From: a virus
Virus record (IMG/VR): IMGVR_UViG_3300043331_002379
Coordinates: 1-35,516 of that record
Reading direction: 5' to 3' (one strand)
DNA: 35,516 bases
A program made the position numbers and the translations under genes. The notes beneath the pieces are model-generated. The model was not told where the DNA came from. It was given only the letters and a program-made list of their open reading frames with translations, and did no database searches. Positions 493 to 25,369 of the stretch are shown piece after piece; position 1 is the first letter of the stretch; every line of letters starts with the position of its first letter.

Positions 493-1815
493 TTACGCAG
501 ACTCCGCACATGAGGACAGGAGAACGGGCGTCTGGCCCGTCAGATCGACCCAGCGTTGCAGGGCGACGGCGACAAATTCGGGCGACAGGTCGAGGGCATA
601 GACCCGGCGTCCGAGCTGCTCGCCGGTGATCAGTTGACTGCCCGAGCCGCAGAAGGGTTCGTAGCACACCTCGCCCGGCAAGGTATGCTGGCGCATCGGC
701 GTTTCCCACAGTTCGATCGGCTTCGGGGTGGGATGCAGGCGCGCCTGCGGCGAGAGATCCTGGCCATAGTGCCACACCGTGTTGGGGTAATCCTCGCCGC
801 GGCGGGGCGGCGGGTGCCCCTGCTGCCAGCCGAAGAGGCACGGTTCGTGCGCGTTCATGTAGTAGGAGTGCCCAATCACCGGACGGGTCTTGCTCCAGAT
901 GATCTGCTGGTGGAAGAGGATGCCGGCCGCCTTCCAGGCCGCGGCCAGGATGTGTTGCTGGCGCGACGCGTGCCAGCAGTACCAGGCAGCGTTGGGGGCC
1001 ACGGCCTCCTGCAGCGCGACGGTGACGAAGGCCTGATACAGCGGCGCCACATCGGTCTGGTCCCAGTCGGTGTATTTGGTGCTCCAGTCCTTGTTTTTCT
1101 TGCGCCTCATCTCTTCCGATTCCTTGCTCCCGACCGGATGGTCCATGCCGGTATAGCCCACGCCGTAAGGCGGATCGGTGGCGAACAGGATGGCGCGGGC
1201 ACCATCCATGAGGCGCTGCACGGTGGCGCCATCGGTGGCATCGCCACACAGCAGGCGATGGCTGCCGAGCTGCCAGAGCTGGCCCCACGCCACGCCATAG
1301 TGGGCGCGCAGGGCCTCCCCCGCATCGAGCCGCGGCTCCACATCGCGCAGCTCCCCGCGGGGCATGGCCGCTTGCGTCTCTTGCCGCAAGCTGTCGAGCA
1401 GGGCCTGCACCGCACTGTGCTGGCTGTGAATCTGCGCCAGCAGGCTGTCCTGCACCTCGGCAGCGCGTTCGGCCAGGGCCGCCAGCGGATCGAGGGTGGC
1501 GAGAATCAGGCGCTCTTCGTCCACGGTCAGATCGAGATAGGTCACGGGGATGGCGGGCTGATGGGTTTCGATGGCCAGGGCGACCCGCAGATGGCCGTCA
1601 ACGAGATGGCCGGTGGTCTGGTTGACCAGCACGTCCTGCACCACGCCCACCTCCTCGAGCACCCCCTGCAGCGCGGCTTTTTGATAGTCGGGATGGCGCC
1701 GCCAGTTCTCGGGGTGGGGGAGCAGCGTGGTCGGATCGGCCACGTCCGAGCGCACGATGCGATTGCGCCAGGGCACGGCGGATGAAGCAGCACGCGGACG
1801 AGCACGCGAGGGCAT
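493..1815 (-). CDS. ParB-fused DNA methyltransferase (beta-class, N4-cytosine/N6-adenine)
   Basis: 440 residues. The N-terminal 110 or so resemble a ParB/Srx-type domain, with VDGHLRVALAI at 72-82. The methyltransferase follows with motifs in the permuted order of beta-class enzymes: catalytic DPPY at 214-217, then the AdoMet-binding FCGSGS at 388-393 followed by RRVYALDLSPEFVAVA. Family knowledge: such enzymes methylate the exocyclic amino group of A or C and, in phages, usually protect DNA from host restriction. It lies directly upstream of the terminase genes. No restriction partner is adjacent, so it is probably an orphan enzyme. The target sequence cannot be read from the gene. Confidence 0.88.
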   Translation of the reverse strand: MPSRARPRAASSAVPWRNRIVRSDVADPTTLLPHPENWRRHPDYQKAALQGVLEEVGVVQDVLVNQTTGHLVDGHLRVALAIETHQPAIPVTYLDLTVDEERLILATLDPLAALAERAAEVQDSLLAQIHSQHSAVQALLDSLRQETQAAMPRGELRDVEPRLDAGEALRAHYGVAWGQLWQLGSHRLLCGDATDGATVQRLMDGARAILFATDPPYGVGYTGMDHPVGSKESEEMRRKKNKDWSTKYTDWDQTDVAPLYQAFVTVALQEAVAPNAAWYCWHASRQQHILAAAWKAAGILFHQQIIWSKTRPVIGHSYYMNAHEPCLFGWQQGHPPPRRGEDYPNTVWHYGQDLSPQARLHPTPKPIELWETPMRQHTLPGEVCYEPFCGSGSQLITGEQLGRRVYALDLSPEFVAVALQRWVDLTGQTPVLLSSCAESA

Positions 1816-6530: not shown

Positions 6531-6565
6531 GGTCACATACTTCTGATAACATCAATTATGTCACC
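6531..6565. terminator. Nested inverted repeat at the 3' end of the repressor gene
   Basis: GGTCACATA (6531-6539) and TATGTCACC (6557-6565) are arms with one mismatch; inside them TGAT (6544-6547) and ATCA (6551-6554) form a second arm pair. The site overlaps the stop of the minus-strand repressor. It may be that gene's terminator or a protein-binding site. Confidence 0.3.
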
Positions 6566-6788
6566 CTGGCGGCTCGACAAACAGCCGCGCCACCGGCACC
6601 CCCAGCGCCCGCGCCAGCAGGTAGACCCGGCGCAGGCTCAGCGCGTAGCGCCCGTGCTCGATGCGACTGATGGTGGTCTGACTGCGGCCGATGGCCGCCC
6701 CCAGCGTCGTCTGTTTCATCCCCTGGGCGGTGCGTACCGCCTGAATGTTCCGTCCCACCACCTCCAGCAGGTGGGCATACGTGGCCAT
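6561..6788 (-). CDS. CI-like repressor, XRE helix-turn-helix
   Basis: 75 residues from the ATG at 6788; the frame opens further (to 6851), but only 6788 follows a ribosome site. An HTH_3 domain fills most of the protein: VGRNIQAVRTAQGMKQTTLGAAIGRSQTTISRIEHGRYALS, then LRRVYLLARALGV. There is no peptidase or dimerisation domain, so it is much shorter than lambda CI and more like a compact immunity repressor or Cro. It is transcribed opposite to the flanking early genes, as expected for an immunity gene. Its leader contains ten consecutive G next to the ribosome site and a 20-bp palindrome just upstream (6808-6827), consistent with autoregulation. Confidence 0.82.
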   Translation of the reverse strand: MATYAHLLEVVGRNIQAVRTAQGMKQTTLGAAIGRSQTTISRIEHGRYALSLRRVYLLARALGVPVARLFVEPPG

Positions 6789-6795
6789 ACCGTCT

Positions 6796-6805
6796 CCCCC
6801 CCCCC
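6796..6805 (-). repeat. G10 tract in the repressor ribosome site
   Basis: Ten consecutive C on the plus strand read as G10 on the mRNA, between GGAG and AGACGGT-ATG of the repressor gene. Runs of this length can change by slippage and would alter the spacing or structure of the ribosome site. Confidence 0.6.
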
Positions 6806-6807
6806 TC

Positions 6808-6827
6808 CTGGGCACAATTTTGCCCAG
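6808..6827. promoter_or_regulatory. Operator-like palindrome upstream of the repressor
   Basis: CTGGGCACAATTTTGCCCAG is a 20-bp palindrome with one mismatched pair, 19 bases upstream of the repressor start codon. The central CACAATTTTG recurs at 7492-7501 before the helicase. Size and place fit a site for a dimeric HTH repressor; binding is inference. Confidence 0.5.
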
Positions 6828-7153
6828 AGGCAGGGGAAAAACACCATGCACGTTTTATGCGTTTACTCGCGCATATTTACAGCCACACGGCAGCCAGAAG
6901 GCTGCGGCCTGGTGGGGTTCTAACGAGCCTTCTTAACACGATAAAGGCTCGGAAAGGCGTCACTTAACAGGATGGCATGTCTGTGAATTTCCGGTAAAGG
7001 TTGGGCATTGATTCAGCCCCTGTCCAGTGCTATGCTGTGAGGACGAAAATCGCATGCCCTCAGAGAGTCGTGATACTGATTTGAGCATGTGCCGTCTCTT
7101 CCGCTGCTGCTCTGCCTCACAGGCCATGCTCTTGCGATAGAGGAGTATGGCAG
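6828..7153. promoter_or_regulatory. Control region between repressor and plus-strand transcription unit
   Basis: About 325 nt with no convincing gene. It holds an 8-bp perfect inverted repeat, CGAGCCTT (6924-6931) and AAGGCTCG (6944-6951), around a 12-nt AT-rich loop. It also holds a plus-strand promoter, listed separately. The repressor promoter on the minus strand must lie here too, but I see only weak candidates, for example CATAAA in the 6855-6865 area. Confidence 0.5.
7008..7036 (+). promoter_or_regulatory. Plus-strand promoter candidate
   Basis: TTGATT (7008-7013), 17-nt spacer, TATGCT (7031-7036), each 4 of 6 to consensus. It would transcribe the small gene at 7154 and possibly the helicase operon. 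Confidence 0.4.
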
Positions 7154-15470: not shown

Positions 15471-15491
15471 AAGGCCCGCCCCGCGGGCCTT
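15471..15491. terminator. Bidirectional terminator-like hairpin between converging operons
   Basis: AAGGCCCGC (15471-15479) pairs perfectly with GCGGGCCTT (15483-15491) around a CCC loop. It lies between the plus-strand nuclease stop (15379) and the minus-strand endolysin stop (15498). No long T-run. The rest of 15380-15470 shows nothing else. Confidence 0.6.
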
Positions 15492-16075: not shown

Positions 16076-16312
16076 TCATTTCCCCTGGGCACACGTCGCC
16101 GCGAGCGCCATATGGGCCTTGTACTCGTCCATGAGTTGCTGGTACAGCAGGGCCTTTTCCTGCCGTAAGTGGCGCATCTCCCCCAGCAGCACATACGCGA
16201 CCAACCCGCCACTGACCACTGCGATGAGTAAAGAGACGGGGCCTCCTTCCCTGGCGATTTGCAACAGGGTCAGGAGCCAGCCGCGTGGCGTCTCCGGCAG
16301 GGCTTCACTCAC
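16076..16312 (-). CDS. Small membrane protein, holin or spanin candidate
   Basis: 78 residues from a GTG at 16312. One clear membrane segment (about 27-47, VSLLIAVVSGGLVAYVLLGEM), then a charged helical tail (RHLRQEKALLYQQLMDEYKAH) resembling a short coiled coil. The single segment and coiled tail fit an i-spanin-like or class III holin-like protein; I cannot choose. The GTG overlaps the stop of the previous gene (GTGAGTGA), so the two are translationally coupled, and the endolysin follows at once. Confidence 0.7.
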   Translation of the reverse strand: MSEALPETPRGWLLTLLQIAREGGPVSLLIAVVSGGLVAYVLLGEMRHLRQEKALLYQQLMDEYKAHMALAATCAQGK

Positions 16313-16553
16313 GATGCGGCTCCGTCTGGTAGCAGCGCCAGGCCAGGTCGACCTGCGCTTTTTGCGCGGCGACGACCTGGTTCCAGAGCGCCTGATTGAC
16401 CCCATGCACGCGAGCGATCTCCGCGGTAAACCAGTAGATCGAGGCGGCCCACAGCCCCAGGAGAATCATCACCGTCACCGGTGAGGCCGTGCAGAGGGCG
16501 GGCCAGATCGCGCCGATCCACCCACGCACATTCTCGGGGGTGGGAGCGACCAC
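16305..16553 (-). CDS. Small membrane protein, holin candidate
   Basis: 82 residues from a GTG at 16553, AGGAGG about six bases before it. A hydrophobic stretch (about 15-42, IWPALCTASPVTVMILLGLWAASIYWF) could make one or two membrane passes, followed by a soluble helical tail. Together with the overlapping 78-residue protein and the endolysin it forms a typical lysis cassette. Holin function is inferred from position, size and topology. Confidence 0.7.
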   Translation of the reverse strand: MVAPTPENVRGWIGAIWPALCTASPVTVMILLGLWAASIYWFTAEIARVHGVNQALWNQVVAAQKAQVDLAWRCYQTEPHRE

Positions 16554-17722: not shown

Positions 17723-20700
17723 TTAGCCCACGGTCCAGGTGCCGATCATCGCGACGGCCATCCACTGGCTGGGGTTGACCGCCACCAGGGTGATCGAACC
17801 ATAGAGCGTCGTGGTTTCGACGTAGCCTGCCGTGGTGCTCTGCCCCACGCCCGCGACACGAATAAAATCCCCCGTAAACGCCCGCACCCGCACCCCGGAG
17901 GCTCCGCTATACAGGCAGACGGTATAGACCAGGCCGGCCACGGCGGAGGGGAGGTTGACCTGGGCTTTGGCACTGGCATTGTTGGAGGCCAGCAGTGCAT
18001 TGGACTCCTCTGCCGTGAGCACATACGGCGCGGCTTCGGTCCAGGTCGTGCCGCTGATAACCGGCAGACGGGTATACAGGCCATTGCCGATGCGGGTAAT
18101 CACCCCATCTTCCGACCGGAAGTGCCAGGCGGTGGTCCCGGCCACGCCGTTGAGGTCTTCCACCCAGGCTTGCGCCGCATCCGTGGGCGTATTGGTCGGG
18201 CCAGAGCCCTGCCCGAGCGCGAGGGCGTTCGTCGCGCTCGCACCGGCTGTCGTGGTGCCGACGACTAAACTCCCCAGATACGTCAAGCGCATGGCCTCGA
18301 TGGGCGTCGCCGTCCCCAGCGGCGTCAAGCCCCACACCAGTTCACTGCCCAGGTCGGTGCCGGTATGAGCACTGATCGCCCGACAGCGGAAGTACCCGGA
18401 GAGCGCCCCTGGGTCGGCAAGCCCGGCGTCATTGGACCAGAACTCCACGCCACCAATGACGCTGCCACTGGCGATATTGACCCGTTGCGAGCCGAGGATG
18501 AGTTGCCCGGTGAGCACATCGGTATTCTGGACATGCAGCGGGGCCAGGGCCACGACGCCACTGGTGAGCCCCACCCCGACAAAGCCATTGCTGCGGATCA
18601 CGACGGGTTCAATCGGGGTCGTCGTGCCAGCGGGCGTGACCCCGAAGGAGAGTTGCGTCCCCAGGATGCCTGGGCTATGGGTCTGGGAGGCCACGCCACG
18701 CACGTAGGCCGTCATCTGCCCTGGACTGGGCAGACTCGTATCGTTGCTCCAGAACTCGACCCCGCCAAGGACGTTGCCGCTCACGATGGCTGTTCGCTGC
18801 GAACCCAGGATCAGTTGCCCGGTGGTGAGATTTTCGTTGGTCACATGCATCCGACTCTGCGGGTCGCTCATACCGATACCGACCCACCCGTTCTGGTCAA
18901 TCCGCAGCCGTTCAATAATCGCCGCGGTGGCCGGACCAGCCGTATAGAAGACCAGGCGTCCTCCGGCCCGCCCCTGCGCGTCCATGCCATCCGTGACCGT
19001 ATCAATGCGGCCCAGGGTCGCCCAAATATCTGCCGTATCGGTATTATTGCGGACATACCCTTGCATTTGCAGGAGGCCGACATTATCCCCGGAGACCAGA
19101 CGCGCTGGCGTACTGGCGGTGCCACGGGACTTGCGGAAGAGCAGATTCATCCCCGTGGCATTGGCATCCCCCCGCTCGAAGTAGACCGTCGGGTTATACA
19201 CGTGGAAGTTCCCCGCCGGAGCCGTCGTGAAAAAGCCCACCATAGCCCCGATGACGTGCTCGACCCCAGTCTCATCGCGGATATGCAGGGAGGACGCACC
19301 CGCTGTCCCTGCCACATCAGCGGCCCAGAGTTGCACGGCATCGGCTGGCGAGGTGGTCGGGGCGGTGCCGTTGCCCAGGGCGAGGACTTTTCCCGCGCTG
19401 GTGCCAAAGGTGTTGGTGCCAATGCCGATGTTGCCGGTCACCCCCTGGAGACTCAGATGCGCCGTAAAGGTTATCCCGTCGGCGGTACTCATGGCCCCGA
19501 GATCCAGGCGGGCACTACTCTGGGCAAACACCTGCATCACGCCCCCCTGGATGCCAAAGCCGTTGCGCTGGGTGGCCAGGCTGCCATAGAGCAGCAGCTT
19601 TTGCCCCACCCCGGTGGCCAGGGTAAGTTGGGCCGTCGCATCGGGCGCAATCCCAATGCCGAGCCGGCCATCACTGCTGGTCGCCATGCCGGGCACCGCT
19701 TCCATGGTCTGCCCGCCGCTGGCATAGCGCGCCACGCTGAGCGCCGTGCCCGCCGGCACCTTGGCAGCTAGGCCTGCCGGGGTGACCGCCCGGGTGGCGT
19801 CGGTGCCGGTGGTGGTTTCGGCATTGGTGGCCAGTTCGACCATCCCGGCATTGCCGGTGGAGGCGATGGGCAGGGCAGCCAGGCGTTGGGCCAGGCCCTG
19901 CGGGGTGACCGCCTTGCTATGGTCGATGCCGGTATTCACGTCGTTAAAGGAGGCGAGCTGGAGGATACCGCTGACCGTTTCGCTGGCCGCCGGGGGCGTC
20001 ACCGTGGCCAGCCGGGTGGCCAGCTTCAGGGGCGTCACGATGCGCAGGTCATCGGTGCCCGTGCTCACCTCCCCCTGGGTGGCCAGCTCGGCAATGCCCG
20101 CCACCGTTTCGCTGGCCGCTGGGGGCGTCACCGTGGCCAGGCGTTGCTGCAGCTTGAGGGGCGTCACCGCCTTGGTGTCGAGGCTCCCCGCGGTCACTTC
20201 ACTCTGGGTCGCCACGCCGATGAGCCCCCAGCGGCTCTCGGTCGCGGTGCGGGCCACGAGCGTCGCCGCGGTCACCGCCTTGGTGCCCTCGCTCCCGGCC
20301 AGCACCTCGGCCTCCGTGGCCAGCAGGATGAGCCCCCGCGTGCTGGTGGAAGCGTTCGGGAGGTTGTTGATCTTGTGCTGCAGGGTGGCCGGGGTGATGG
20401 CCTTGGTGGTCTCGGTCCCCTGGTTGGCCTCGAGATTGGTGGCCAGGGCGATGAGGCCCGTGCGCGTGTCCAGCGCCGTCCGGCTGGTGAGCCCAGCCGG
20501 CGTGACCGCCCGCACGGTATCGGTCCCGCCCTGGACCTCGGCGACCGTGGCCAGCTCCACCACCCCGGCGACCGTCTCGCTGGCCGCTGGGGGCGTCACC
20601 GTGGTCAGGCGTTGCTGCAGCTTCAAGGGGGTGACGATCCGCGCATCGTCGGTGCCACTGGTGACCTCGGCCTGGCTGGCGATCTCGGCCACGCCGCTGC

Positions 20701-21361
20701 GCGTTTCCGTGGCCGTCCGGCTGGTGAGCCCGGCGGGCGTGATCGCCCGCGTCGTATCCGTGCCCGCCTGCACCTCGCCCGGGGTGGCCAGCTCCACCAC
20801 CCCGGCGACCGTCTCGCTGGCTGGCTCGACCCCCGGGAGGGCCGCCAGGCGCTGCGCCAGCTTGAACGGCGTGACCGCCTCGGTATCGCTGACGCCAGCG
20901 GTGACTTCCGCCAGCGTCGCCAGGGTGAGCACGCCAGCGACCGTCTCGCTCGCGGCCGGCAGTGTCCCGCCCGCGCCGCCCGTGACGGTCGGGTAGAGAT
21001 CCGCCCCATCGCAGAGCAGGAGCGCCCAGGTCGCCGCGTCGAGGGTGACCCCGGTGCCAGTTGGCGGGCGCAGGGTCACGGCCTCGGTCAGCGTGTTATG
21101 GACCAGGTAGCGCCGGGCTTTCTGGGGCACGATCACCGTATGCGGCCCTGTGGCCGTGCTCTCGAGCACCAGGGCGCCAAACTTGGCCTCGCCGGTCACC
21201 CCATCACTCAGGGTATACTCTCCTCCAGGGAGCGTGAGGGTGAGTACCCCGGCCACCTGGGCATCGAGGGTCCACAGCCCATCGTTGACGACGACCTCCC
21301 GGTTGGGCGCCCCCACCTGCATGTAGAGGAGATCAAGATTTGGAGTGGCAACCTCGACCAT
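17723..21361 (-). CDS. Tail fibre / receptor-binding protein with repeat shaft
   Basis: 1212 residues. After a beta-rich N-terminal adapter (1-135) come ten imperfect repeats of 35-44 residues (about 136-535) with the pattern ETVAGVVELATxxEVxxGTDTxRAVTPxxL, the Phage_fiber_2-type shaft found in long tail fibres. The distal part holds two tandem copies of a unit beginning TGQLILGSQR and GGVEFWSND (near 880-1080), and two copies of a unit ending with TDAAQAW or PADAVQLW followed by HxRxExGV. The C-terminus is beta-rich and probably the receptor-binding tip. No S74 autoprotease motif was seen. It is downstream of the tail-tip gene with a plus-strand gene between them. Confidence 0.85.
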   Translation of the reverse strand: MVEVATPNLDLLYMQVGAPNREVVVNDGLWTLDAQVAGVLTLTLPGGEYTLSDGVTGEAKFGALVLESTATGPHTVIVPQKARRYLVHNTLTEAVTLRPPTGTGVTLDAATWALLLCDGADLYPTVTGGAGGTLPAASETVAGVLTLATLAEVTAGVSDTEAVTPFKLAQRLAALPGVEPASETVAGVVELATPGEVQAGTDTTRAITPAGLTSRTATETRSGVAEIASQAEVTSGTDDARIVTPLKLQQRLTTVTPPAASETVAGVVELATVAEVQGGTDTVRAVTPAGLTSRTALDTRTGLIALATNLEANQGTETTKAITPATLQHKINNLPNASTSTRGLILLATEAEVLAGSEGTKAVTAATLVARTATESRWGLIGVATQSEVTAGSLDTKAVTPLKLQQRLATVTPPAASETVAGIAELATQGEVSTGTDDLRIVTPLKLATRLATVTPPAASETVSGILQLASFNDVNTGIDHSKAVTPQGLAQRLAALPIASTGNAGMVELATNAETTTGTDATRAVTPAGLAAKVPAGTALSVARYASGGQTMEAVPGMATSSDGRLGIGIAPDATAQLTLATGVGQKLLLYGSLATQRNGFGIQGGVMQVFAQSSARLDLGAMSTADGITFTAHLSLQGVTGNIGIGTNTFGTSAGKVLALGNGTAPTTSPADAVQLWAADVAGTAGASSLHIRDETGVEHVIGAMVGFFTTAPAGNFHVYNPTVYFERGDANATGMNLLFRKSRGTASTPARLVSGDNVGLLQMQGYVRNNTDTADIWATLGRIDTVTDGMDAQGRAGGRLVFYTAGPATAAIIERLRIDQNGWVGIGMSDPQSRMHVTNENLTTGQLILGSQRTAIVSGNVLGGVEFWSNDTSLPSPGQMTAYVRGVASQTHSPGILGTQLSFGVTPAGTTTPIEPVVIRSNGFVGVGLTSGVVALAPLHVQNTDVLTGQLILGSQRVNIASGSVIGGVEFWSNDAGLADPGALSGYFRCRAISAHTGTDLGSELVWGLTPLGTATPIEAMRLTYLGSLVVGTTTAGASATNALALGQGSGPTNTPTDAAQAWVEDLNGVAGTTAWHFRSEDGVITRIGNGLYTRLPVISGTTWTEAAPYVLTAEESNALLASNNASAKAQVNLPSAVAGLVYTVCLYSGASGVRVRAFTGDFIRVAGVGQSTTAGYVETTTLYGSITLVAVNPSQWMAVAMIGTWTVG
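19755..20956 (-). repeat. Ten coding repeats of the fibre shaft
   Basis: Imperfect direct repeats of about 105-130 nt coding for the shaft units; the words corresponding to ASETVAGV and TPAGLTSR recur nearly identically. Such repeats can expand or contract by recombination and change fibre length. Confidence 0.7.
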
Positions 21362-21393
21362 AAGAGCCTTCTTTCTCCCTAGAGGAGTCCGCG

Positions 21394-21570
21394 ATGCGTG
21401 TGTTGGTCCTTCTCGTCCTGCTCAGCCTCACCGGCTGTGCGGCCTATCAGAACACCCTGGAGGGCGTCGTCCGCCAGCGCGAAGCCCGCGGGATCTGTGC
21501 CACGCCGCCCTGTCCGTATGGTTCCTGGCGAGGCTACTCGTCCTATGGGCTGCGGCGGTATCGCTACTAG
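21394..21570 (+). CDS. Small lipoprotein on the opposite strand (moron candidate)
   Basis: 58 residues with a textbook lipoprotein signal: MRVLVLLVLLSLTGC, lipobox LTGC at 12-15. The mature part (about 44 residues) has two more Cys and a Gly/Tyr/Arg-rich tail (GYSSYGLRRYRY). GAGGAG stands six bases before the ATG. It is the only clear plus-strand gene inside the minus-strand late operon, in the 205-nt gap between fibre and tail-tip genes. Its TAG overlaps the minus gene's stop in the palindrome CTAG (21567-21570). Such morons often encode superinfection exclusion or host-altering lipoproteins; an outer-membrane spanin subunit is less likely so far from the lysis genes. Confidence 0.75.
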   Translation: MRVLVLLVLLSLTGCAAYQNTLEGVVRQREARGICATPPCPYGSWRGYSSYGLRRYRY

Positions 21571-24500
21571 CCGTTCACCAGGCGTGTGTCACGCCCCCAG
21601 CCGTAGTTGCCCCGCTGGCGCACGCTCCAGGTCACGGTCGTCTGGGCCGTGCCGAAATCGGCCACCTGCATGGCCTCGGTGTAGACCCAGGTGAGACGGG
21701 TGCTGACGTCGGCCGCCAGCGCCACGGTCTGGCTGCGCACCACGGTGGCGTCGTCCCAGATGCGCACCTGGTAGCTGGTCACGTCGCTGTCGGCGACGAT
21801 CTCGTCGTTGTCGCTCGTCCACAGGCTGTTAAACCGCGCCCGGTGCCACCACCCCAGCTCCCAGTCCGTCCCCATCAGCACCGCGCCGGGATAGGCGACC
21901 TGCCAGGGCAGGAGGTTGGCGGCCTGTGGCGTGTGCGGGATGGCCTCCGCATCGGTCAGTCCCTGGCCGGCGCTGACCGCCTTGTAGTCGGCCTCGACGC
22001 CCCGGTCGCTGAGGGGTAAGGGCAGCAGACGCACCCCGGCATCGAGCAGGACAAACACGTCGCCGTCGGCATGCGTGGCGACCGCCCACTCGGTGCCGCG
22101 TCGGCCGCGCAGCAGGCGTCGGAGTTGGTAGGTGCCCGTGCTCACCAGCTCGGCCCGCCCGAAGTGCAGCAGTTCGGGACCGATGACGCACAGATTCGCC
22201 CCGTTGAACAGGTTGCTGTCGGTGACACTGCGCAGTTGGCCGTGGGTGAGGCGCACCGTCACGACGCTGGTGTCGTCGAGCAATGCCGGGTTGGCTGCCG
22301 GGAGCAGGCTCGCCGTGCCGGTAATCCCCTGTATGGTCGAGACGTCCAGGCGTTGATAGTCGACGTGCTCCGAGGCCCGCCACAGGCTCGCCCCGCGCCA
22401 GGTGCCCCGCGTCGCCTGGTAGACGACGTGGTAGCGGCTGGCCACGTCCTGCGGCCCCAGGGCCGGGAGGTGCAGGAACACCGGCGTGACCGTGGCGACG
22501 TAGCTCGGGGGTTGATCGTGGCTCGGCGGGTCACTGGGTTGCGGCACCCACTCGTCGAGCACCGCTGTGGAGTTCACGGTCCCAGTACACCGCAACAGCC
22601 CGGGCCGCCCATAGGCGACTTCGGTGAGCAGGACCGGGTACGTGAGCCCCCGGATCTCGACGTCGACCAGATCGCCTGGCTCGATACGGGCATACCGCCG
22701 GGTGGTGGCAAAGCGCAGCGACGTCCGTTCGAGGTGCATCCGGTCCATGGTCTCCTGGGCGATGCGTTTGGCCTGCTGCGGCGTGAGGCCGATCAGCACG
22801 TTGAGGGTGCGTTCATTGGCTCGTGCGGTGTCGTCGCGCCCGGGGACGATGCTGGCCCGCTGGGTGTTTTGCTGGTAGCTCTGCTGCGGGTCGATATAGA
22901 GCACCTGGATGGCCGTGGGCATCTGCAGCTCGGGCAGGCGCAGCACCAGCGCCCCGTTGGGCCCGCTGTCCTCGGTGGCCAGCAGGTCGGTGGCCGGGAT
23001 GGTGGCCGCCTGCACCGCCTGGCTGCGCGGCAAAAAGCGCAACACGCCGTTGGACTCGATGGGCAGGAGCTGGTAGGCACGACAGAGCATCTCCACCGGG
23101 ATACGGGCCGCTTCGATGTTCAGGAGCCCGAGAATGATCGGCGTGTCGGGCACCTGGCTGGTGTCGATGGCGTTGGCCGGAATCCCCGCGGCCCGACACA
23201 ATGTCGTAAGCACTTGCGGCAGATTGGCGCTACTCGGCACGCCCTGGATCTTGAGGTCGGGATGGACTTTCAGCACCTGCTGGGCCGGGTTACACAGGGC
23301 AAAGACGCCTCCGTCCGTGGGGTCAGCCTCGAGATGCATCGGGTGCGCCGGGAGGCGCACCAGCCGTTGCCCGCCGCTCGTGTCGATCCGGGTCAGACGA
23401 TTCTGCGCCCAGTCAACGACCCAGACGCGCCCGGCGTCGGCAGGCACCAGCACGGTATAGCCGGGGTTCTGGACGATACTCGTATACACACTTTCGCGCA
23501 CCAGCATCGCCCCGCTGGCGGCGTCGTGGCGTACCGTCTCGGTCAGCCCCGCGACCCACACCTGGCCCTCCGTATCGACGGTGACGTAGCGGGCATTGTC
23601 GGCACTCGGATAGCGCTCGAGGAGGGTGCCCGCGAGGTTGTAGGTGCGCACCTCGCTGTCGTGCGGGATGGGAATCCACAGCTCATTGCGGGTCGGGTGC
23701 CAGCACAGATCGTAGACCACCTCGGGGAGCTGGGCCGTGGCCAGCGGCGTCCCCGCCGGGGTGAACAGATTCAGTTGGCCCAGGTAGCCCAGGATAGCCA
23801 CCCCACTCGGCCAGGCCGCCAGGCGAAAGTAATCGTTGTCCTGACTGAGCGGGATGGTGGTCGGCCCCCCGGTATCGGCGCGCACCAGGTAGCTCACCTC
23901 GTTATCGTAGTGGAAGCCGCCCGTAAAGACCGTCTCGCCCACGAACACCAGGTTGCCGATGAGGCTGAAGCCGACCGGGAAGCTGGTGACGTCGCCCGCC
24001 TCCGTGACCCGCCACAGGGCGTAGGCATCGGACGTGGCCGCCCAGGTGATGTGGGCCGGGCTGATCCCCAGGGCCACGCCGCCGCGCCACAGGAGCGGTT
24101 TGTCCGGATCGAGGAGCACATTCGGGGCGGTCGGCGCCAGGGTCGCTGGGTTGCGCCCGCGCAGGCGCGTCGCCTGGTCGAGAGTGCGCAGGTCGCCGGT
24201 GCCCGGGTCACGGGCCAGCGCGATCAGCGGGGTGGCGGTGGCCCCCGCGTCGCCCTGATAGACCTCAAACGTATAGTTGGGCACGCGGCCGGTGACGCCG
24301 AGGTCGACCTGGTGGCCGACCACGTAGCAGCGGTAGCGATAGGCCGGGGTGTTCTCGGGGCCGATCTCGGCCATGATCGTCTCGTCCTGGCCCTGACTCG
24401 CCGTCCCTGGATAGAAGGTCCACTCGGGGGGCAGAGGGGTGGTGACCTTGTTGTCGTAGATGACCGTGCCATCGGCCCAGATCTTGCTGATACCACGCAT

Positions 24501-24935
24501 CGGCCCGGTGAGGCGCGTGTCGCAGAGCATCACGGCCAGATCGACGGTGTAGGTGTAGGTCAGGTTGATCGTCTGCGGCCCGCCGCCCTTCCCCCCGGGT
24601 GGCTCCACCACCTCGCGGTGCTCGTGGCGCAACTTGTCGCCGATCCAGATGACGTTCCCCGCCAGGCGGTAGCGCTGGAACACCTGCGGGATGGCGCCCC
24701 CATAGCCACTATCCTGGATAAAAATCCGGCTGAGCTGGTCCTGCTCGAAGATCTGATCGGGAGCCGTCGATGTATCGTAGAGTGCCCCAGCCAGGCCGCC
24801 GACCGTGCCGCCAATACTGGCGCCCAGGGACAGCCCGGCGGGAACCGACAGGCCGCCGGTGGGAATGGCCAGGATGAGCCCCACCACCGCGCCCACGACC
24901 ATCCCGGCCAGGGCGCCGGTACTCTGGCCGCTCAT
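21567..24935 (-). CDS. Tail tip (megatron/J-like) protein with an inserted beta-propeller
   Basis: 1122 residues from MSGQSTGALAG at 24935; the open frame continues another 100 codons into a lower-GC island but those do not look native. The start has a glycine-rich membrane-like helix (MVVGAVVGLILAIPTGGLSVPAG). Then come IPQVFQRYRLAGNVIW and IWADGTVIYD, typical of Phage-tail_3 tip proteins; PVEMLCRAYQLLPIESNGVLRFLPR marks the resumption of the conserved part. Between them, about residues 273-560, lie repeats such as YVTVDTEGQVWVAGL and RVWVVDWAQNRLTRID, resembling NHL/YVTN-type propeller blades. Gene order matches the GTA distal-tail set. The protein should cap the tail and help contact or cross the envelope. 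Confidence 0.83.
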   Translation of the reverse strand: MSGQSTGALAGMVVGAVVGLILAIPTGGLSVPAGLSLGASIGGTVGGLAGALYDTSTAPDQIFEQDQLSRIFIQDSGYGGAIPQVFQRYRLAGNVIWIGDKLRHEHREVVEPPGGKGGGPQTINLTYTYTVDLAVMLCDTRLTGPMRGISKIWADGTVIYDNKVTTPLPPEWTFYPGTASQGQDETIMAEIGPENTPAYRYRCYVVGHQVDLGVTGRVPNYTFEVYQGDAGATATPLIALARDPGTGDLRTLDQATRLRGRNPATLAPTAPNVLLDPDKPLLWRGGVALGISPAHITWAATSDAYALWRVTEAGDVTSFPVGFSLIGNLVFVGETVFTGGFHYDNEVSYLVRADTGGPTTIPLSQDNDYFRLAAWPSGVAILGYLGQLNLFTPAGTPLATAQLPEVVYDLCWHPTRNELWIPIPHDSEVRTYNLAGTLLERYPSADNARYVTVDTEGQVWVAGLTETVRHDAASGAMLVRESVYTSIVQNPGYTVLVPADAGRVWVVDWAQNRLTRIDTSGGQRLVRLPAHPMHLEADPTDGGVFALCNPAQQVLKVHPDLKIQGVPSSANLPQVLTTLCRAAGIPANAIDTSQVPDTPIILGLLNIEAARIPVEMLCRAYQLLPIESNGVLRFLPRSQAVQAATIPATDLLATEDSGPNGALVLRLPELQMPTAIQVLYIDPQQSYQQNTQRASIVPGRDDTARANERTLNVLIGLTPQQAKRIAQETMDRMHLERTSLRFATTRRYARIEPGDLVDVEIRGLTYPVLLTEVAYGRPGLLRCTGTVNSTAVLDEWVPQPSDPPSHDQPPSYVATVTPVFLHLPALGPQDVASRYHVVYQATRGTWRGASLWRASEHVDYQRLDVSTIQGITGTASLLPAANPALLDDTSVVTVRLTHGQLRSVTDSNLFNGANLCVIGPELLHFGRAELVSTGTYQLRRLLRGRRGTEWAVATHADGDVFVLLDAGVRLLPLPLSDRGVEADYKAVSAGQGLTDAEAIPHTPQAANLLPWQVAYPGAVLMGTDWELGWWHRARFNSLWTSDNDEIVADSDVTSYQVRIWDDATVVRSQTVALAADVSTRLTWVYTEAMQVADFGTAQTTVTWSVRQRGNYGWGRDTRLVNG

Positions 24936-25369
24936 GCCGCCCCGCTCGTTGGTGAGCAAATGTGCGGCGCAACCCCCCTGCTTTAGCTGTGGGGTCAAGC
25001 CGCACTGGCTCTGCAAGAGCCACATCTGCCAACGGTACTTTGTGTGGTTCGTGTCCATAGTTGTTGGGTACAATGTCTCTAGTTCTTTGAAACTCGACAT
25101 AGGGCGTTGGTGCAGGAAGTCTGCACCGTAAAATGTTGAACGCCAGAGACCAGTTGCTTCATCTGCCACCATGCTTGCCATGGTCGCTGCAACGGATAGT
25201 CCGTTTCCTCCAAGGGAGAGCAGATGCAAGAGCACTACAAGCGGCTCTGCTTGGAACTTGCAGGCGATTATCTTGGGTCAACACCCCGAACTGAACCGCA
25301 TCTCCTCTCCGGAGGAGTCGCGAGGGAAGCGGGACGGTAAGGTGGAACGATGTGCTTCGGGTGTGGGAG
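24936..25369. other. Lower-GC island between NlpC and tail-tip genes; possible moron or structured RNA
   Basis: About 430 nt that no conserved late gene explains; base composition is visibly lower in GC. On the plus strand: a promoter-like pair (25107-25134), a hairpin GGTGCAG-GAAGT-CTGCACC (25109-25127), an AGGGAG-preceded ORF of 38 codons (25224-25340) and a second of 38 codons starting MCFGCG (25350-25466, antisense to NlpC). Also a tetraloop hairpin CTCCTC-TCCG-GAGGAG. On the minus strand: a 72-codon ORF (25377-25159) with GGAGG before its ATG, overlapping the NlpC stop, and the 100-codon upstream extension of the tail-tip frame. I cannot say which, if any, is expressed. Confidence 0.5.
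25107..25134 (+). promoter_or_regulatory. Plus-strand promoter candidate inside the late operon
   Basis: TTGGTG (25107-25112), 16-nt spacer, TAAAAT (25129-25134). A perfect 7-bp inverted repeat (25109-25127) fills the spacer, so a regulator could sit between the two boxes. It would transcribe the small plus-strand ORF at 25224. Confidence 0.4.

What the first reader, a model, noticed from the sequence alone, without database searches (positions are those of the whole stretch)
21394..21570. Plus-strand lipoprotein gene nested in the minus-strand late operon, sharing the CTAG stop
A 58-codon gene with perfect ribosome site and lipobox (LTGC) reads against the surrounding operon, and its stop overlaps that of the tail-tip gene in a 4-base palindrome. 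This is the signature of a moron. Lysogen-expressed phage lipoproteins frequently block superinfection (for example T5 Llp), and this one sits beside the receptor-binding fibre gene it could counteract.
Basis: partly seen in the sequence, partly recalled or inferred. Interest (0 to 1): 0.6.

Follow-up and report, generated by a model that had tools for sequence, protein, structure and literature searches.

The report
Small phage lipoprotein beside tail genes
A partial, uncultured tailed-phage genome carries a tiny, probably real gene for a membrane-anchored lipoprotein wedged backwards between its tail-tip and tail-fibre genes, a position like that of known phage proteins that block re-infection, but with no sequence relative and no proof of that role.

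Summary
ORF 21394-21570 (+) encodes 58 residues with a strong lipoprotein signal (MRVLVLLVLLSLTGC), a ribosome site (AGAGGAG, 6 nt from ATG) and a stop sharing CTAG with the tail-tip gene. It fills the largest gap (205 bp) in the minus-strand late operon. It is the only ORF in the window with lipobox, ribosome site and ATG (0.005 expected per random sequence), and its synonymous codon choice is phage-like (1 of 5000 random recodings as good). So it is very probably a real lipoprotein gene.

Function is not shown. No relative was found in any collection searched; no promoter, terminator or odd base composition supports a classic moron. It lacks the Cor motif and the Cys arrangement of Cor/Llp. 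For superinfection exclusion there is position only: T1 Cor, Rtp45 and the T5-like Bas33 protein also lie beside the tail-tip or receptor-binding gene on the opposite strand. A spanin subunit is less likely: 5 kb from the endolysin, other strand, no long inner partner. "Lysogen-expressed" is unsupported: no integrase found, and the record is a fragment.

Best reading: an ORFan accessory outer-membrane lipoprotein, most likely a receptor-masking exclusion protein (about 0.42). New member of a known kind; modest interest.

The parts
21381..21387 (+). ribosome-binding site AGAGGAG, 6 nt before the start codon
   Evidence: sequence
21394..21570 (+). 58-aa lipoprotein ORF; predicted cleavage after residue 14, mature part 44 aa (5.1 kDa, pI 9.6), three Cys (lipidated C15, then C35 and C40)
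21394..21438 (+). signal peptide and lipobox LTGC (residues 1-15)
21567..21570 (.). CTAG, overlapping stop codons of the lipoprotein ORF (+) and tail-tip gene (-)
21567..25235 (-). tail-tip gene (Phage-tail_3, Rcc01698_C; PHROG 4271), weakly like central tail fibre J; convergent with the ORF
17723..21361 (-). tail fibre gene (PHROG 910/972, collar and proximal fibre), divergent from the ORF; 32 bp lie between the two start codons
15498..16553 (-). lysis cassette for comparison: GH19-like endolysin (15498 to about 16064) and two short proteins (16076-16318, 16305-16553), each with one apparent hydrophobic segment read by eye; no lipoprotein ORF here

Best explanation
The ORF is a genuine accessory gene for a small outer-membrane lipoprotein. 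Most likely it is made in the infected cell, exported, lipidated at Cys15 and sorted to the outer membrane (Ala, not Asp, at +2). There its short basic, Arg/Tyr-rich mature part would bind the phage's own surface receptor, or a neighbour of it, and hinder adsorption of further phages and loss of progeny on debris, as Llp and Cor do. Supported by sequence: ORF, lipobox, ribosome site, position. Inferred: expression, lipidation, localisation, receptor binding, exclusion.
For: Coding and lipobox statistics. It abuts the J-like tail-tip gene and the fibre gene. In five reference phages looked at, the exclusion lipoprotein lies within about 1.1 kb of the tail-tip or RBP gene, and in 3 of 5 it is on the opposite strand: T1 Cor, Rtp45, Bas33; same strand in N15 and phi80. 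Passages of PMC9586334 and PMC8594841 say RBPs and cognate exclusion proteins are thought to be encoded directly downstream of gpJ. A passage of PMC4728585 says BF23 Llp has no homology to T5 Llp yet does the same job, so lack of sequence similarity does not exclude the role. Of 43 related loci covering the tail-tip end, none has a lipoprotein ORF abutting it, which fits an accessory gene.
Against: No significant family or homologue match; PHROG Cor at E = 0.11 covers residues 2-30, mostly the signal peptide, and Rz-like spanin scores equally well (0.089). The Cor RAGYPF motif and late Cys are missing. The mature part is only 44 aa and predicted with low confidence (mean pLDDT 62.6 from a single sequence). 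No promoter found; with 32 bp between the divergent start codons a promoter would probably lie inside the fibre coding region. Host and receptor unknown.
Confidence: 0.42

Rival explanations
1. A real phage lipoprotein with another envelope role (lysogenic conversion as lambda Bor, envelope stress, exclusion of unrelated phages), not masking of its own receptor.
For: All direct evidence is for a lipoprotein only; no match ties it to exclusion.
Against: The position between tail-tip and fibre genes matches exclusion genes; no sign of a temperate life cycle beyond an HTH_3 regulator.
Confidence: 0.36
2. An outer-membrane spanin (Rz1-like) subunit for lysis, displaced from the lysis cassette.
For: Size close to Rz1 (recalled); no other lipoprotein ORF with a ribosome site in the fragment; PHROG Rz-like spanin is the top, non-significant hit (E = 0.089).
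Against: Opposite strand and about 5 kb from the endolysin; the two short proteins beside the endolysin have short tails and no long coiled inner partner is seen. In a related locus the spanin-like pair overlaps and sits by the endolysin (L032 11974-12204 and 12092-12334). The mature part, with 3 Pro of 44 residues, is not Pro-rich.
Confidence: 0.13
3. Not a gene: a chance ORF in a spacer or antisense region.
For: No homologue and no promoter; intermediate plain codon score.
Against: Lipobox, ribosome site and ATG in one ORF is expected 0.005 times per random window; synonymous codon bias; it exactly fills the largest operon gap.
Confidence: 0.09

Closest known systems
Cor of T1, phi80 and N15 (PHROG 1119)
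   Same: small lipoprotein gene close to the J-like tail-tip gene; on the opposite strand in T1
   Different: 75-78 aa with RAGYPF and two further Cys at alignment positions C25 and C73; the window protein lacks the motif and has a close C35/C40 pair; Cor lies behind two membrane-protein genes, absent here
Llp of T5 / BF23 and the Bas33 exclusion protein
   Same: small lipoprotein on the strand opposite to the adjacent RBP gene (Bas33); receptor-blocking lipoproteins can be unrelated in sequence
   Different: Llp binds FhuA from the periplasm and has a Cys11-Cys58 disulphide; the window protein shares little beyond the signal peptide with the Bas33 protein; T5 Llp itself was not compared
Rtp45 of phage Rtp
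   Same: putative phage lipoprotein convergent with the J-like gene
   Different: about 76 aa rather than 58, and paired with membrane protein gene rtp44
Rz1-type o-spanins
   Same: short lipoprotein
   Different: not in a lysis cassette, not overlapping an inner spanin gene
Bor of lambda (recalled)
   Same: lipoprotein moron on the strand opposite to the late genes (recalled, no call)
   Different: no match found to any family

Membership tests
bacterial/phage lipoprotein | n-region with K/R, hydrophobic core, lipobox with Cys | tested here: met
   R2, VLVLLVLLSL (mean hydropathy 3.46), LTGC; own rule-based test, no SignalP-type predictor available
Cor/Llp superinfection-exclusion family | sequence match to the family | tested here: not met
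   PHROG 1119 E = 0.11, residues 2-30 only; alignment with five exclusion or putative lipoproteins shares only M1, GC of the lipobox and one Cys
Cor/Llp superinfection-exclusion family | RAGYPF motif (Cor) and Cys pair joining the termini | tested here: not met
   disulphide of Llp from PMC9586334
Cor/Llp superinfection-exclusion family | gene beside the tail-tip or RBP gene | tested here: met
Cor/Llp superinfection-exclusion family | blocks the receptor of its own phage | not testable with these tools
   needs a host and the phage
moron | extra gene between genes that are neighbours in relatives | tested here: inconclusive
   0 of 43 distant loci have a lipoprotein ORF abutting the tail-tip stop; no close relative covers the site
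moron | own promoter and terminator | tested here: inconclusive
   no consensus site on either strand, 20800-22300; the scan covers sigma-70 type only
moron | differing base composition | tested here: not met
   65.5% GC against 66.1% for the window
moron | expressed from the prophage | not testable with these tools
   no RNA data; temperate life cycle not shown
Rz1 o-spanin | lies in the lysis cassette overlapping or next to an i-spanin gene | tested here: not met
   comparator L032

The most novel reading that the evidence does not exclude
A sequence-unrelated class of very small (44-residue) superinfection-exclusion lipoprotein in phages with GTA-like tails, acting through a basic Arg/Tyr-rich mature part without the Llp disulphide fold, encoded convergently with the tail-tip gene.
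Probability: 0.25. Interest if true: 0.45.

Novelty: new member of a known kind. Interest (0 to 1): 0.27.

Why it matters
If it is an exclusion protein, it extends the tail-tip/lipoprotein pairing known from coliphages to an uncultured phage with a GTA-like tail and shows that position, not sequence, is the way to find such genes. If not, it is one of many unassigned small phage lipoproteins.

Tried and rejected
Homology: P0001 against phage and plasmid records, viral contigs (40 candidates, 0 confirmed), genome contigs (210 candidates, 0 confirmed), 20 related records (no positive control), a degenerate C-terminal pattern, Pfam, PHROGs, NCBIfam, PADLOC and the PDB: nothing significant. The collection scans with a single protein use exact 8-residue words, so diverged relatives could be missed.

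Close relatives: single-protein scans with tail tip, fibre N-terminus and the BR0599 gene found none; DUF2460 found one 4.8-kb contig, 100% identical over residues 1-174, that ends before the locus, and none in genomes. The methyltransferase scan gave 80 loci with relatives of 37-54% identity; I did not examine those loci.

In the survey, 83 loci were searched, 66 matched the tail tip and 43 had its end plus 800 bp. In two of the 43 (L037, L038) the match stops at query residue 334 or 327, so the end located may not be the true one. Four of 43 had some lipobox-like ORF within 2.5 kb (L022, L026, L050, L051), none abutting the stop; only L026 looks convincing and it is on the same strand.

Structure prediction from one sequence was too poor to search with. 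Rfam and tRNA searches of the window were empty. One paper search for opposite-strand lipoprotein morons gave one paper, not read.

Full report
What is there. The window is a virus record of 35,516 bases, 66.1% GC. The minus strand from about 15.5 kb to the right end carries lysis, tail and head-tail connector genes: endolysin, fibre, J-like tail tip, NlpC/P60, BR0599/Gp84_N, DUF2460, tape measure, tail terminator, head closure. No portal, capsid or large terminase gene was seen among the proteins scanned, and the late operon runs into the right end, so the record looks like a fragment (inference). The nearest named phages are distant: all 115 phage records matching the DUF2460 protein are below 60% identity, the best listed 43.6%, and all 115 records matching the tail tip are below 60%.

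The ORF. 21394-21570 (+) reads MRVLVLLVLLSLTGC-AAYQNTLEGVVRQREARGICATPPCPYGSWRGYSSYGLRRYRY. It has AGAGGAG 6 nt upstream and a stop that overlaps the tail-tip stop in CTAG. It is divergent from the fibre gene (32 bp between the start codons) and convergent with the tail-tip gene.

Is it real? The combination of lipobox, hydrophobic core, ribosome site and ATG occurs once in the window and 0.005 times per simulated window. Synonymous codon choice is phage-like, with 1 of 5000 random recodings as good. The gap it fills is the largest in the late operon. Against this, the plain codon score is intermediate and no homologue exists to show conservation. I judge a real gene at about 0.9.

Relatives. 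With an alignment of six DUF2460 proteins I fetched 80 IMG/VR loci. Of 83 loci (three named phages added), 43 contain the tail-tip end and at least 800 bp more; none carries a lipoprotein ORF abutting the tail-tip stop. The gene is therefore not a fixed part of this kind of tail module. The matched tail-tip stretches are only about 24-36% identical, so this says nothing on when the gene arrived.

What it may do. Five reference phages were read: Cor of T1 (opposite strand), Rtp45 (opposite strand, convergent), N15 and phi80 Cor (same strand), Bas33 exclusion protein (opposite strand, divergent from the RBP gene). All lie within about 1.1 kb of the tail-tip or RBP gene. I chose these five because they are known examples, so they show what exclusion genes look like, not how often a lipoprotein in this position is one. 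Passages of PMC9586334 describe Llp jamming FhuA from the periplasm and exclusion proteins located downstream of gpJ; passages of PMC8594841 suggest the same for RBP loci; passages of PMC4728585 say BF23 Llp is unrelated to T5 Llp; passages of PMC13164509 describe Cor loci. I read passages only, not whole papers.

What it is not. It is not a Cor/Llp family member by sequence. It is a poor fit to an o-spanin: the lysis cassette is 5 kb away on the other strand, and in a related locus the spanin-like lipoprotein overlaps the inner-spanin-like gene beside the endolysin (these names are my reading of the ORFs, not family matches). The moron label is only partly earned.

Verdict. An ordinary but probably real ORFan phage lipoprotein gene whose position suggests, and does not show, superinfection exclusion.

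Noticed in passing
L032 11974-12204 and 12092-12334; similar lipoprotein ORFs in L030, L041, L042, L049, L052, L057, L060, L064, L076, L081, L088: A recurrent same-strand spanin-like lipoprotein (ending ...DLDDRMTGTCR or close variants) overlapping out of frame a short membrane-protein gene; in L032 an endolysin-like cassette sits between the DUF2460 and BR0599-like tail genes.
   Followed up: partly
15471-15491: Perfect inverted repeat AAGGCCCGC-CCC-GCGGGCCTT just past the endolysin stop, between the plus-strand early genes and minus-strand late genes: a possible two-way terminator.
   Followed up: partly
24900-25235: The tail-tip protein has about 100 extra N-terminal residues compared with the six relatives aligned, a GTG start without a clear ribosome site and a 134-bp gap before it; the start may be misplaced.
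   Followed up: no
17723-21361 (-): Fibre with many repeated segments resembling proximal and collar fibres of T4-like phages (PHROG 910/972) in a phage with a GTA-like tail: a mosaic join.
   Followed up: no
6561-6851 (-): HTH_3 regulator divergent from downstream plus-strand genes (helicase from 7618), a possible switch region.
   Followed up: no
493-1815 (-): DNA methyltransferase with ParB-like matches in its N-terminal half; 135 confirmed relatives in viral contigs.
   Followed up: no
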